In this document: in pieces, positions 1,865 through 62,786 of the stretch
Layout of the letters: each line of letters starts with the position of its first letter
How positions within the stretch are numbered: position 1 is the stretch's first letter
NCBI GenBank assembly: GCA_030691075.1
Contig: JAUYFI010000030.1
Span: 1-64,000 of the forward strand
Source: Sulfurisoma sp.
Lineage (GTDB): Bacteria > Pseudomonadota > Gammaproteobacteria > Burkholderiales > Rhodocyclaceae
Direction of reading: 5' to 3'
Length of the DNA stretch: 64,000 nt
Position numbers and translations under genes: made by a program
The notes under the pieces: model-generated
Told to the model about the DNA's origin: nothing
Databases searched by the model: none
What the model saw: the letters and a program-made list of their open reading frames with translations, nothing else

Positions 1865-2440
1865 GTGCAGGAAAACAATCAGGAAAATACCCCCCTAGCC
1901 GAAATAGAGGAAAAAGTCGGCGCTGGCGACACGGCAACTGATGCCGCCAGCGCCCCCGCGGCGGACACCATGCCCAGCCTCGAAGACATGCTCAGGGCCG
2001 CCGAGCTCAAGGCCGCCGAGCATCACGACGCCTGGCTGCGCGCCAAGGCCGAAACCGAGAACATCCGCCGCCGCGCCCAGGACGATATCGGCCGCGCCGG
2101 CAAGTTCGCCATCGAGAGGTTCGCCGGCGAGCTGCTGGCGGTGAAGGATAGCCTCGAAGCCGCTCTGGCCAACGAGAACCAGTCAGCCTCCGCGATGAAA
2201 TCCGGTGTCGAGCTGACCCTCAAGCAGCTCGCCGCCGCCTTCGAGAAGTCCAGCCTGGTCGAGATCAATCCGCTGGAGGAAAAGTTCGACCCGCACAAAC
2301 ACCAAGCCATCAGCCAGCTCGAGGCCGATGGTGAGCCCAGTCGCGTGATCAACGTGCTGCAGAAAGGCTACGCCCTGCACGAACGCGTGATCCGCCCGGC
2401 GCTGGTGGTGGTGTCGAAGGCCAAGGCGCCGGCGGCTTGA
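1865..2440 (+). CDS. grpE: Nucleotide exchange factor GrpE
   Basis: GrpE releases ADP from DnaK and acts as a homodimer with a long N-terminal helix. The frame gives 191 residues with the coiled-coil region (LRAKAETENIRRRAQDD) and the C-terminal beta-domain signature (NPLEEKFDPHKHQAIS, then GYALHERVIRPALVVV). GTG 1865 is preceded by AAGGAAC at good spacing and lies downstream of the sigma-32 promoter. An in-frame ATG exists at 1829 but would sit at the transcription start. The N-terminal tail (about residues 16-25, EKVGAGDTAT) is made by one copy of the dispersed repeat, inserted in frame in a disordered part of the protein. dnaK and dnaJ follow. Confidence 0.95.
   Translation: MQENNQENTPLAEIEEKVGAGDTATDAASAPAADTMPSLEDMLRAAELKAAEHHDAWLRAKAETENIRRRAQDDIGRAGKFAIERFAGELLAVKDSLEAALANENQSASAMKSGVELTLKQLAAAFEKSSLVEINPLEEKFDPHKHQAISQLEADGEPSRVINVLQKGYALHERVIRPALVVVSKAKAPAA
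1911..1938 (+). repeat. Dispersed short element, copy 1 (in grpE)
   Basis: Full match to the short form: AAAAAGTCGGC followed directly by GCTGGCGACACGGC. It is read in frame as KVGAGDTA in the N-terminal tail of GrpE. Confidence 0.85.
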
Positions 2441-2463
2441 AGTAGCGGCGAATAACCCCATCT
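2436..2463 (+). promoter_or_regulatory. Sigma-32 promoter before dnaK
   Basis: CTTGAAG at 2436-2442 and CCCCATCT at 2456-2463 are separated by 13 bases, a nearly perfect heat-shock promoter. The -35 overlaps the grpE stop codon. dnaK starts 45 bases downstream of the -10, so dnaK can be induced independently of grpE. Confidence 0.8.
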
Positions 2464-2507
2464 CCAGAGCAGCTTAGTTCTCCAACGAATTTCAGAAGGA
2501 CATCAAC

Positions 2508-4442
2508 ATGGGCAAGATCATCGGCATCGACCTGGGCACCACCAACAGCTGCGTCGCCATCATGGAAGGCGGCAAGCCCAAGGTGATCGAAAACTCCGAG
2601 GGCGCGCGCACCACGCCCTCCATCGTCGCCTACGCCGAGGACGGCGAGATCCTGTGCGGTGCCAGCGCCAAGCGCCAGGCCGTCACCAACGCGCGCAACA
2701 CGCTCTACGCCGTCAAGCGCTTGATCGGCCGCCGCTTCGAAGAGAAAGAAGTGCAGAAGGACATCGACCTGATGCCCTTCACCATCTGCAAGGCCGACAA
2801 CGGCGATGCCTGGGTGCAGGTCCGCGACAAAAAAATGGCGCCCCCGCAAGTCAGCGCCGAAGTGCTGCGCAAGATGAAGAAGACGGCCGAGGACTACCTC
2901 GGCGAAGAAGTGACCGAGGCGGTCATCACCGTGCCGGCCTACTTCAACGACAGCCAGCGCCAGGCCACCAAGGACGCCGGCCGCATCGCCGGTCTGGAAG
3001 TCAAGCGCATCATCAACGAGCCGACTGCGGCCGCGATTTCCTTCGGCCTCGACAAGCAGGAAGGCGACCGCAAGATCGCGGTGTTCGACCTGGGCGGCGG
3101 CACCTTCGACATTTCCATCATCGACATCGCCGAGATCGAGGGCGAGCATCAGTTCGAGGTGCTGTCGACCAACGGCGACACCTTCCTCGGCGGCGAGGAC
3201 TTCGACCAGCGCATCATCGACTACATCGTCACCGAGTTCAAGAAGGACCAGGGCGTCGACCTCAAAAACGACGTGCTGGCGCTGCAGCGTCTGAAGGAAG
3301 CCGCCGAGAAGGCCAAGATCGAGCTCTCCAGCAACCAGCAGACCGAGATCAACCTGCCCTACATCACGGCGGACGCCACCGGGCCGAAGCACCTGGCGAT
3401 AAAAATCACCCGCGCCAAGTTCGAGTCGCTGGTGGACGAGTTGATCGAACGCTGCGTCGCGCCCTGCCGCATGGCCATCAAGGATGCCGGCGTCAAGATC
3501 GAGGATATCGCCGACGTCATTCTCGTCGGCGGCATGACGCGCATGCCCAAGGTGCAGGACAAGGTCAAGGAACTGTTCGGCAAGGAACCCCGCCGCGACG
3601 TGAATCCGGACGAGGCCGTCGCCATCGGCGCCTCCATCCAGGGCGGCGTGCTGCAGGGCGAAGTCAAGGACGTGCTGCTGCTCGACGTCACCCCGCTGTC
3701 GCTGGGCATCGAGACGCTGGGCGGCGTGATGACCAAGCTGATTCAGAAGAACACGACGATTCCGACCAAGACCAGCCAGACCTTCTCCACCGCCGACGAC
3801 AACCAGAACGCGGTGACCATCCACGTCATGCAGGGCGAACGCGAAATGGCCGCCGGCAACAAGAGCCTCGGGCAGTTCAACCTCACCGACATCCCGCCCT
3901 CCCCGCGCGGCATGCCGCAGATCGAGGTCACCTTCGACATCGACGCCAACGGCATCCTGCACGTCTCGGCGAAAGACAAGGGCACCGGCAAGGAGAGCAA
4001 GATCACCATCAAGGCCAACTCCGGCCTCTCCGACGAGGAGATCCAGCGCATGGTGCACGACGCCGAGGCCCACGCCGAGGAAGACAAGAAGGCGCACGAG
4101 ATGGTCGAGTCGCGTAACCAGTGCGACGCCATGATCCACTCGGTGAAGAAAGCGCTCACCGAGCACGGCGACAAGCTTGAAGCCGACGAGAAGGCCAGGA
4201 TCGAAGCCGCCATCAAGGACGCCGAGGAGGCCATCAAGGGTTCGGACAAGGACGCCATCGACGCCAAGTCGCAGGCGCTGGGCCAGGTCTCGCAGAAGCT
4301 CGGCGAAAAAATCTACGCCGAGAGCCAGCAGGCGGCGGGCGGCGACCAGCCCGGCGCCGGCGCGGCACCGGGCGGCGAGGCGAAGAAGGACGACGCGGAT
4401 GTGGTGGATGCCGAGTTCACTGAAGTCAAGGACAAGAAGTAA
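2508..4442 (+). CDS. dnaK: Chaperone protein DnaK (Hsp70)
   Basis: ATP-dependent Hsp70 chaperone, cytoplasmic, working with DnaJ and GrpE. 644 residues, the usual length. The ATPase domain begins KIIGIDLGTTNSCVAIMEGG. The phosphate-binding DLGGGTFDISII lies near residue 195, and IVDVIxVGGMTRMP-type residues appear as DVILVGGMTRMPKVQ. The substrate-binding part has DVTPLSLGIETLGG, and the lid ends in a Gly/Ala-rich linker plus DVVDAEFTEVKDKK. The start ATG follows AGAAGGA. It lies between grpE and dnaJ on the same strand, with its own heat-shock promoter. Confidence 0.99.
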   Translation: MGKIIGIDLGTTNSCVAIMEGGKPKVIENSEGARTTPSIVAYAEDGEILCGASAKRQAVTNARNTLYAVKRLIGRRFEEKEVQKDIDLMPFTICKADNGDAWVQVRDKKMAPPQVSAEVLRKMKKTAEDYLGEEVTEAVITVPAYFNDSQRQATKDAGRIAGLEVKRIINEPTAAAISFGLDKQEGDRKIAVFDLGGGTFDISIIDIAEIEGEHQFEVLSTNGDTFLGGEDFDQRIIDYIVTEFKKDQGVDLKNDVLALQRLKEAAEKAKIELSSNQQTEINLPYITADATGPKHLAIKITRAKFESLVDELIERCVAPCRMAIKDAGVKIEDIADVILVGGMTRMPKVQDKVKELFGKEPRRDVNPDEAVAIGASIQGGVLQGEVKDVLLLDVTPLSLGIETLGGVMTKLIQKNTTIPTKTSQTFSTADDNQNAVTIHVMQGEREMAAGNKSLGQFNLTDIPPSPRGMPQIEVTFDIDANGILHVSAKDKGTGKESKITIKANSGLSDEEIQRMVHDAEAHAEEDKKAHEMVESRNQCDAMIHSVKKALTEHGDKLEADEKARIEAAIKDAEEAIKGSDKDAIDAKSQALGQVSQKLGEKIYAESQQAAGGDQPGAGAAPGGEAKKDDADVVDAEFTEVKDKK

Positions 4443-4456
4443 AACAAAACCATGAA

Positions 4457-4524
4457 CCACAGAGGCACAGAGACACAGAGTTTCTTCTCTGTGGTTTTCT
4501 CTGTGCCTCTGTGTCTCCGTGGTG
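4457..4524 (+). repeat. Inverted ACCACAGAG-type repeat between dnaK and dnaJ
   Basis: Left arm 4457-4481 begins ACCACAGAGGCACAGAG. Right arm 4500-4524 is its imperfect reverse complement and ends CTCCGTGGT, with an 18-base spacer. The arms pair at nearly all of 25 positions. This CACAGAG-rich motif is a widespread dispersed repeat in environmental bacteria. It fills almost the whole dnaK-dnaJ gap and ends 9 bases before dnaJ. Confidence 0.8.
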
Positions 4525-61932: not shown

Positions 61933-62282
61933 GCGGGCAGGCCATCCAGCCAGGCGCGGGCATCTTCGACGTCGTGGAAGACGCGCAGGTCGGCGGCGAC
62001 GAACACCTGCGACAGCCACGCGCTCCAGGCGATCCATTCGCTGTCGGTGACGACGGCGATGCGGTTGAAGTCGTCGCCGTGCGTGCGCGAGAACTTGATT
62101 TCCTCCCACGCCATGTCGACGGTGAAGTCGGCCATTTCGGTGAGATCGAAGAGCAGGTTGACCGGCCCCTCGAACTTGACCTTGAACTGGACCAGTTCCT
62201 CGAATTCCTTGAAATCCGCCAGCGTGAATTCGCCGAGAACGGCGACCGAGACCTGGCTGTCGCGATAGTCTATGGTGATCAT
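61929..62282 (-). CDS. STAS/SpoIIAA-like domain protein
   Basis: 117 residues: MITIDYRDSQVSVAVLGEFT, ADFKEFEELVQFKVKFEGPV, NLLFDLTEMADFTVDMAWEE, RIAVVTDSEWIAWSAWLSQ. This is the SpoIIAA-like STAS fold of unknown role. Translationally coupled (ATGA) to sseA. Confidence 0.8.
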   Translation of the reverse strand: MITIDYRDSQVSVAVLGEFTLADFKEFEELVQFKVKFEGPVNLLFDLTEMADFTVDMAWEEIKFSRTHGDDFNRIAVVTDSEWIAWSAWLSQVFVAADLRVFHDVEDARAWLDGLPA

Positions 62283-62315
62283 TTGTGTTTCCCTTTCATG
62301 ATTCGGCAATATAGC

Positions 62316-62619
62316 TCAATCCGTGCCGGCCGGTGCCACGCGGGATACCCGCGTCGCCGCGACGCCGCCGGCGACGATGAGCGCGATGCCAAGCCAGGTC
62401 GGCCACGGCAGCGACTCGCCCCACGGCCACAGGCCGAACAGGCTGGAGAAAATCACCGTGGTATAGGCGAGACTGGCCGCAGCCATGGTGCTGCCGCGTT
62501 TGTAGGCAGAACACCAACTCGGCCGCCGAGAAGCTGGTGGCGGCGAGCTTGACGCAGACCCCCATCGCGGCGAGCTGCAGGCTCGCCGCGAGCATCCCGA
62601 GGGAGGGCATGAACCGCAT
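62316..62619 (-). pseudogene. EamA/DMT transporter remnant
   Basis: The N-terminal part MPSLGMLAASLQLAAMGVCV with KLAATSFSAAELVF is the first span of an EamA transporter. The C-terminal part STMAAASLAYTTVIFSSLFG with WLGIALIVAGGVAATR is the last two spans. They lie about 30 bases apart in different frames. About 200 residues in the middle are missing, so this is a deletion remnant. Confidence 0.8.
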
Positions 62620-62761
62620 GATCGGGGCTGCCCGATCATCACTCCTGAAGGGCGGCGCGGCGCGCTATCGTCGCACGCGCCTTGCGCCGGATGGTAGCCG
62701 ACAGGAGAACACACCGGGAAGCCCCAGGAACAATGGCCGCCGGAAAAACATGGAGACATAT

Positions 62762-62786
62762 GCCGTACCGCCAGCACCGACTTTTC
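62762..62786 (-). repeat. Dispersed short element, copy 14 (intergenic)
   Basis: On the minus strand: GAAAAGTCGGT then GCTGGCGGTACGGCA. It lies between the EamA remnant and the small acidic protein gene. Confidence 0.8.

What the first reader, a model, noticed from the sequence alone, without database searches (positions are those of the whole stretch)
1911..62786. Family of 14 short dispersed elements, ten inside protein genes
I see 14 copies of one short sequence, left half AAAAAGTCGGC joined to right half GCTGGCGACACGGCGA, on both strands. Gene copies: grpE 1911, queA 8181, secF 12200, membrane protein 19213, ccoI 33750, ispH 50668, ileS 53991 and 54230, amiC 58803, queG 59596. Intergenic copies: 7354, 25898, 37757, 62762. 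Density is about one per 4.6 kb. None breaks a frame. This resembles Rickettsia palindromic elements, but the sequence is different, and I know of no description for this lineage.
Basis: partly seen in the sequence, partly recalled or inferred. Interest (0 to 1): 0.92.

Follow-up and report, generated by a model that had tools for sequence, protein, structure and literature searches.

The report
DNA uptake tag in Rhodocyclaceae genomes
A 25-letter DNA motif occurs about 500 times in this bacterium's genome, most of the sampled copies inside genes, and recurs with small genus-specific changes in several related genera; it is likely a self-recognition tag that would help the cells take up DNA of their own kind, something established so far, to my knowledge, in two other bacterial families.

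Summary
In detail: the window's 14 copies belong to a family of 523 matches in the 3.39 Mb genome, against 0 for the reversed pattern. The RPE-like reading does not. The core is a 25-bp asymmetric motif, AAAAGTCGGCGCTGGCG-NN-ACGGCG, with two free positions, on both strands and in all six frames. At 10 sites where a relative lacks it, none is a clean 24-27 bp insertion and 4 include a gap-free comparison. Constrained positions outlast flanks, a synonymous position defies codon bias, spacing is even, genera differ by dialect and phage genes carry it. DNA uptake sequences (DUS/USS) behave so. I propose, as inference, an uptake motif of several Rhodocyclaceae genera; uptake is untested, and unaligned DNA was not depleted on the one contig tested. 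Inserts of 21, 24 or 27 bp sit at one place inside some copies and differ between species at the same site; they are unexplained. No uptake sequence of this family was found in the held papers.

The parts
1912..1935 (+). motif copy, short form, in grpE (1829-2440 +)
   Evidence: 0 mismatches; protein EKVGAGDTAT; GrpE by Pfam
7354..7377 (-). motif copy, short form, upstream of queA
   Evidence: 1 mismatch
8181..8204 (+). motif copy in queA (ORF 7291-8403 +)
   Evidence: 1 mismatch; no more than 1 residue of gap there against two solved QueA sequences, 1vky and 1yy3
12201..12224 (+). motif copy in secF (11869-12843 +)
   Evidence: 0 mismatches; SecD_SecF_C by Pfam
19213..19236 (+). motif copy in an unnamed ORF of the - strand (18832-20133)
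   Evidence: 1 mismatch; G002 lacks it at equal length
25898..25945 (+). split form with inner insert, overlapping the stop codon of a universal-stress-family gene (25231-25899 +)
33751..33774 (+). motif copy in a ccoI-type P-ATPase gene (33001-35454 -)
   Evidence: 0 mismatches; G003 has a nested form here
37759..37782 (+). motif copy, intergenic, near the edge of the minor-pilin region
   Evidence: 0 mismatches
50672..50722 (-). long form (27-bp insert) in ispH (50539-51486 -)
   Evidence: 9-residue gap against solved IspH 4h4c, right half is native VGVTAG
53992..54042 (-). long form (27-bp insert) in ileS (53835-56660 -), second site
54230..54253 (-). motif copy in ileS (EKSALATRW), first site
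   Evidence: 1 mismatch; G003 has a 27-bp nested form
58804..58827 (-). motif copy in amiC-type gene (57642-58922 -)
   Evidence: 1 mismatch; Amidase_3 and AMIN
59595..59618 (-). motif copy in queG (59351-60427 +)
   Evidence: 2 mismatches; G003 lacks it, 3 bp shorter
62762..62785 (-). motif copy, intergenic
   Evidence: 1 mismatch
39574..40056 (+). minor pilin gene with ComP_DUS domain: candidate receptor, untested
   Evidence: PF16732 33.6 bits, cut-off 27.3; only such hit in this genome

Best explanation
The repeats are copies of one 25-bp motif that is likely read as a DNA uptake sequence: a type IV pilus DNA receptor would bind it, so that DNA of the same clade would be taken up preferentially and the motif would spread by recombination. 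Shown: the motif, its copy number, positional constraint, dialects, replacement-type gains, even spacing and presence in phage genes. Inferred: that the binding partner is a pilus-type receptor and that uptake bias is the driving force. The inner 21/24/27 bp inserts are a separate layer, probably later, that lands in or leaves the middle of the motif; how is not known.
For: 523 genomic matches, both strands equal, control 0. 127 of 180 copies in 1.23 Mb of six genomes lie inside called genes (genes cover 91-93%), in all six frames: 49, 16, 4 same-strand and 33, 20, 5 opposite. A 25-bp information block, free at positions 17-18. Identity between species over 44 equal-length comparisons (reciprocal ones included): constrained positions 810 of 924, free NN 61 of 88, flanks 333 of 479 and 307 of 416; the same pattern is reported for neisserial DUS (PMC2397512, passages). 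DNA-level constraint: the Ala codon at positions 10-12 is GCT:GCC 37:3 against 2908:24170 in the genes, and the opposite-frame Pro codon CCA:CCG 20:8 against 1381:10509; my pattern allowed both letters. Replacement: of 13 comparisons at 10 sites lacking the motif none differs by 22-28 bp and 5, at 4 sites, differ by 0. Spacing: gaps under 500 bp 2 of 161, random mean 12.1, as low in 3 of 5000. Dialects: T beside C at position 9 in G011, A at position 24 in G022 (35 of 37); in G072 none of 13 matches is listed without a mismatch and the 10 listed all bear GTCGAC, as does its ileS site shared with the window genus and a site shared with G011. Phage portal, terminase and tail genes carry it, as USS do in Pasteurellaceae phages (PMC6776037, passages). 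It heads the over-represented 12-mers of G000, G001, G003, G011 and G095. ComEC in 18 of 18 genomes searched.
Against: No uptake or binding data. ComEC and the ComP_DUS pilin also occur in motif-poor genomes (18 of 18; 102 of 111), so the machinery does not discriminate; by eye the pilins of G000 and G011 differ from those of G001, G003, G004 and G022. Depletion in acquired DNA, reported for DUS, is not seen: 5 of 20 copies fall in the 30.1 of 117.6 kb not aligned to G001/G003, though numbers are small. The motif is longer than DUS and USS (lengths recalled) and sparse (one per 5-11 kb). Close pairs are rare (2 of 161 gaps under 500 bp). The nested inserts have no place in the uptake model. 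Rich genera are not one clean clade: g88 stands apart. The G072 dialect rests on about a dozen copies, and one weak copy there has GTCGGC. Three motif-poor genomes showed no comparable motif of their own.
Confidence: 0.55

Rival explanations
1. The motif is a chromosomal binding site (nucleoid organisation, segregation or similar) for an unknown protein, kept by selection and unrelated to DNA uptake.
For: Compact, asymmetric, constrained 25-bp site, evenly spaced, both strands; old and shared by several genera; not depleted in unaligned DNA on one contig.
Against: Presence in phage portal, terminase and tail genes and clade dialects fit uptake drive better; equal numbers on the two strands (260:263) speak against KOPS- or Chi-like use, though position along replichores was not resolved.
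Confidence: 0.2
2. A short mobile element (RPE-, REP- or MITE-like) spread in the ancestor and the copies are its old remains, some still holding the inner hairpin-like part that was lost elsewhere.
For: Inner 27/24/21 bp parts are clean gains or losses at a fixed place, also between genes (27 bp in 21 of 22 L-type forms), and ispH carries a 9-residue insertion.
Against: No clean whole-unit insertion at 10 sites; constrained positions outlast the flanks; dialect base at orthologous sites; no Y1/RAYT-type transposase found in G000, G001 or G022.
Confidence: 0.17
3. The copies are native protein motifs or chance matches.
For: Some sites overlap native residues: P-ATPase 34439, VGVTAG in IspH, GxT in QueA.
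Against: 523 against 0; 43 of 180 copies intergenic; codon choice GCT 37:3 against a genomic share of 0.107; six frames.
Confidence: 0.02

Closest known systems
DNA uptake sequence (DUS) of Neisseriaceae, with ComP receptor
   Same: Dispersed motif, itself more conserved than its flanks, in permissive places, with clade dialects (PMC3630211 abstract and passages; PMC2397512 passages).
   Different: 25 bp instead of 10-12 (DUS length recalled); hundreds instead of thousands of copies; close pairs rare; another family; uptake untested; nested inserts.
Uptake signal sequence (USS) of Pasteurellaceae
   Same: Dialects and accumulation in temperate phages (PMC6776037 passages); A-rich part plus core (recalled).
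   Different: Other sequence and class of bacteria; lower density; uptake untested.
Rickettsia palindromic elements (RPE)
   Same: Copies inside protein genes without breaking frames (RPE features recalled).
   Different: Here replacement not insertion, all six frames, 25 bp, also common between genes, stable sites.
REP elements with RAYT transposases
   Same: Short, numerous, dispersed.
   Different: Mostly inside genes; no Y1 transposase found in three motif-rich genomes.

Membership tests
DNA uptake sequence (DUS/USS) | strongly over-represented short motif on both strands | tested here: met
   523 vs 0, 260:263; top 12-mers in five genomes
DNA uptake sequence (DUS/USS) | in genes in all frames and between genes | tested here: met
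   127 in genes, 43 intergenic, 10 partial of 180; six frames
DNA uptake sequence (DUS/USS) | motif more conserved than flanks | tested here: met
   810/924 vs 333/479 and 307/416
DNA uptake sequence (DUS/USS) | clade-specific dialects | tested here: met
   the G072 dialect rests on about a dozen copies
DNA uptake sequence (DUS/USS) | accumulates in temperate phages of the hosts | tested here: inconclusive
   real phage genes carry it, but loci were chosen for having it, so accumulation was not measured
DNA uptake sequence (DUS/USS) | depleted in recently acquired DNA | tested here: inconclusive
   no depletion on one contig: 5 copies in 30.1 kb unaligned, 15 in 87.5 kb aligned
DNA uptake sequence (DUS/USS) | competence machinery and a cognate receptor | tested here: inconclusive
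   ComEC 18 of 18, ComP_DUS pilin 102 of 111, motif-poor genomes included
DNA uptake sequence (DUS/USS) | fragments with the motif are taken up preferentially | not testable with these tools
   needs a transformation or uptake assay
RPE | whole-unit in-frame insertion in genes | tested here: not met
   0 of 10 sites with a 22-28 bp difference, 4 with a gap-free comparison
RPE | one preferred reading frame (recalled) | tested here: not met
   six frames, though one holds 49 of 127
REP/RAYT | extragenic position | tested here: not met
   127 of 180 in genes
REP/RAYT | Y1/RAYT transposase in the genome | tested here: not met
   none found in G000 (90% complete), G001, G022; one each in G003, G004, G011, two in G002
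REP/RAYT | hairpin with conserved tetranucleotide (recalled) | not tested
   no fold was computed

The most novel reading that the evidence does not exclude
Rhodocyclaceae are a third lineage with a genome-wide DNA uptake code: a 25-bp tag with genus dialects, read by a pilus receptor, copied into prophages, and itself colonised by a set of frame-preserving 21/24/27 bp hairpin inserts that use the tag as their landing site.
Probability: 0.4. Interest if true: 0.88.

Novelty: new variant of a known kind. Interest (0 to 1): 0.74.

Why it matters
Preferential uptake of DNA with specific short sequences is described for Pasteurellaceae and Neisseriaceae (PMC1939737, abstract); I know of no further family. 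An independent case with a longer motif, environmental hosts, dialects across genera and finished genomes (one very likely Sulfuricystis multivorans) would let the old question, selfish drive or selected mate recognition, be tested by comparison. It would also show how a DNA-level signal writes one short peptide (KVGAGDTA and its frame variants) into many unrelated proteins.

Tried and rejected
Rejected: RPE-like insertion; RAYT-driven REP; native peptides. An apparent run of + copies after 1.8 Mb of G022 is a listing artefact: the 100 places shown hold, by my count, all 46 forward but only 54 of the 72 reverse matches. A match between motif richness and the kind of ComP_DUS pilin was sought by eye and not found. 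Uptake-type motifs in motif-poor genomes G018, G083 and G026 were sought in 200 kb each; no 12-mer reached the threshold of 12 occurrences. In G022 the top words are a CRISPR-like repeat, and the motif is not among the 14 words listed. Ten G072 loci were compared with stretches of seven genomes and other loci held: two aligned near the motif, one of them across it; in the other the alignment ends before the motif and two relatives have none there. Literature: uptake sequence with Rhodocyclales or Rhodocyclaceae, and repeated sequence with Sulfuritalea, gave 0 papers; one search listed 15 papers, unrelated by title and abstract start.

Rows dropped: only comparisons with both flanks aligned were kept (107, from 102 sites); the 8 with 5-6 mismatches were not read one by one; 11 of the 24 with 7 or more mismatches are nested forms and were set aside before the count of 13. 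Four gap-free sites include one (19213) where another pairing gives -6. In one search, 61 further matches with unrelated spacers of 12-45 bp were set aside as chance or overlaps. In one search, 111 of 120 IleS rows could be read, and the sorting pattern is loose. The IleS tree uses 28 of the 30 genomes searched (G004 and G019 left out as fragments). Ortholog sites of one genus are counted as separate copies, so those P values are too small.
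Full report
Check of the observation. All 14 places are in the sequence and both halves exceed shuffles. The window is G000:C88:1-64000 of a 3.39 Mb, 193-contig genome. That genome holds 523 matches at up to 3 mismatches to AAAAGTCGGCGCYGGCGNNACGGC, 260 forward and 263 reverse, and none for the reversed pattern. The three other genomes of the genus have 507, 472 and 243 at up to 2 mismatches.

Where it occurs. Among 395 genomes of the family (20-mer, up to 1 mismatch), every genome with more than 20 matches belongs to one of six genera: g1, g2, g9, g20, g63, g88. 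Four of four g1 genomes, nine of nine g88, 21 of 22 g2, 17 of 19 g20 and the single g9 and g63 genomes have more than 150; the remaining one of g2 has 20 and the two of g20 have 0 and 42 (counted from the list). Of the 24 genomes of other families of the order drawn, one had 4 matches and 23 none. Most records named are Rhodocyclaceae (Sulfuritalea, Rugosibacter, Sulfurisoma, Sulfuricystis); a few assembled genomes bear other names (Thiobacillus, Azonexus, Propionivibrio, Burkholderiaceae, Gammaproteobacteria). G022 is very likely Sulfuricystis multivorans and G106 Sulfuricystis thermophila, since contig lengths agree. On an IleS tree of 28 genomes nine rich rows, the dialect genome G072 and the poor genome G013 form one group (SH-aLRT 90, midpoint root) and the two g88 rows lie elsewhere. 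This is a quick tree of one protein that itself hosts copies.

Anatomy. Piled copies give a 25-position block, mostly 1-2 bits per position inside and at most about 0.6 outside; positions 17-18 are free and position 12 is T or C. The block is not a palindrome. Genera differ at single positions: T beside C at 9 in G011, A at 24 in G022. In G072 the 20-mer with GTCGGC has 13 matches at up to 1 mismatch; the 10 listed all have GTCGAC and none is exact. A search for the GTCGAC form itself finds 10 exact 23-mers in G072 and none in G000, G095, G019 or G103.

Relation to genes. In 1.23 Mb from six genomes, gene calls of my own cover 91-93%. Of 180 copies 127 are inside genes, 43 between and 10 across an edge. 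All six frames are used; the frame that reads KVGAGDTA is commonest (49). That the constraint acts on DNA and not on a peptide is shown by the Ala codon in that frame, GCT 37 and GCC 3, while the same genomes' genes use 2908 GCT and 24170 GCC. The search pattern allowed both letters equally. Intergenic copies have T:C 41:2 at that place.

Replacement, not insertion. Syntenic stretches of G000, G001, G002 and G003 (73-92% identical over the longer blocks) show that many sites are shared (the printout was cut). Of 107 flank-anchored comparisons 75 have the motif at up to 4 mismatches, 8 at 5-6 and 24 at 7 or more. Eleven of these 24 are nested forms. The remaining 13, at 10 sites, differ in length by 0 (five), -3, +3, -5, -6, +15, +16, -18 and -30; none is near -24 to -27. 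One example is ..IYKVGAGETAV.. against a sequence of equal length that reads KAEAGEPEQ in two relatives (second reading by eye from its DNA). One gap-free case (19213 against G002) is poorly alike over all, 33 of 69 bases. In IleS homologs, loops with the peptide have a median of 22 residues and loops without it 23, while nested forms have 30-34 (70, 35 and 6 of the 111 read, of 120). IspH is different: its long form is a 9-residue insertion against the solved IspH 4h4c, placed beside a native VGVTAG that already matches the right half.

Maintenance. In 44 equal-length comparisons, reciprocal ones included, constrained positions agree in 810 of 924 cells, the free dinucleotide in 61 of 88, and the near flanks in 333 of 479 and 307 of 416. 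The distance between neighbours is more even than random: 2 of 161 gaps under 500 bp (random mean 12.1) and a coefficient of variation of 0.68 that none of 5000 random placements reached. At the ileS site G072 carries its own dialect base (2 further mismatches), and a second site is shared with G011, again with the dialect base in G072. These are the two motif sites of G072 that I could align across; my reading is that sites stay while the letters follow the genome's dialect.

Phages. At least 120 stretches of viral contigs hold an exact match to the 23-mer; the scan stopped at its limit. In the 80 held loci there are 127 copies at up to 3 mismatches in 721 kb, but these loci were chosen for having one. 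Of six ORFs scanned, one is a portal protein, one a tail fibre J, one a terminase large subunit, two match phage families without a clear role, and one matched nothing. For Pasteurellaceae, USS accumulate in temperate phages (PMC6776037, passages), so this fits the uptake model, although I had not predicted it.

Second layer. Between AAAAGT and CGGCG some copies hold an insert of one of three kinds: L (ACCCCAAGGGTACTTCCTGCGGGGCGC type), M (TATGCGTAGCGGTATCC type, peptide MRSGI) or T (TTCCGCAGGAACGCAGAGCGC type). L adds 27 bp in 21 of 22 forms, also between genes; M adds 24 bp in 5 of 8; T adds 21 bp in 4 of 4. The same orthologous site can be plain in one species and L or M in another. In this genome 27 L-type cores were found; three of them (L051, L052, L054) show little or none of the outer motif by eye. 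I do not know how they move. Each kind holds a small palindrome by eye; no fold was computed.

Interpretation. A motif that is constrained at the DNA level, sits in all frames, is gained by replacement, differs by clade dialect, is spaced evenly and occurs in phage genes behaves as DUS and USS do. I therefore commit to an uptake-sequence-like motif at 0.55. The window also carries the genome's only ComP_DUS-type minor pilin hit (39574-40056) in a minor-pilin cluster, which makes it a candidate receptor, but such pilins occur in 102 of 111 family genomes and do not track the motif. ComEC is present in 18 of 18 genomes searched, motif-poor ones included. Against the reading stand the lack of depletion in unaligned DNA on the one contig tested, the low density and length of the motif, and the nested inserts.

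Comparison with the literature. Seen: abstract and passages of PMC3630211, passages of PMC2397512 and PMC6776037, abstract of PMC1939737; other papers only as search listings. Searches for uptake sequences with Rhodocyclales or Rhodocyclaceae returned no paper of the held library; most subscription journals are not in it. Features of RPE and REP and the lengths of DUS and USS are recalled.

Noticed in passing
window 39574-49795: Minor-pilin cluster: ComP_DUS/PilE-like, FimT/GspH-like and PilW-like genes and a 2131-residue ORF in the place where PilY1 would be expected (position only; no Pfam hit); 36942-50519 is not aligned to two congeneric genomes.
   Followed up: partly
window 34439-34462 -: A 4-mismatch match in the P-type ATPase gene is native protein sequence (VGVGDTVLVKPGE), a near-match that needed no element.
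   Followed up: yes
window 1-140: The first 137-140 bases recur at 99-100% in contigs C14, C75, C96, C138, C139 and C187 of the same genome, at the very start of two of them: probably a larger repeat at which the assembly breaks.
   Followed up: no
L051, L052, L054: L-type cores (ACCCCAAGGGTACTTCC type) with little or none of the outer 25-bp motif, so they may be a repeat family of their own.
   Followed up: partly
G022:C1 within 1-200000: A 58-60 copy repeat with words such as CTTAATCCCTTT and GCATGTTTCCTA, probably a CRISPR array.
   Followed up: no
L399 883-2238: A viral contig with five motif copies, the first four 316 bp apart: a tandem repeat that carries the motif.
   Followed up: no
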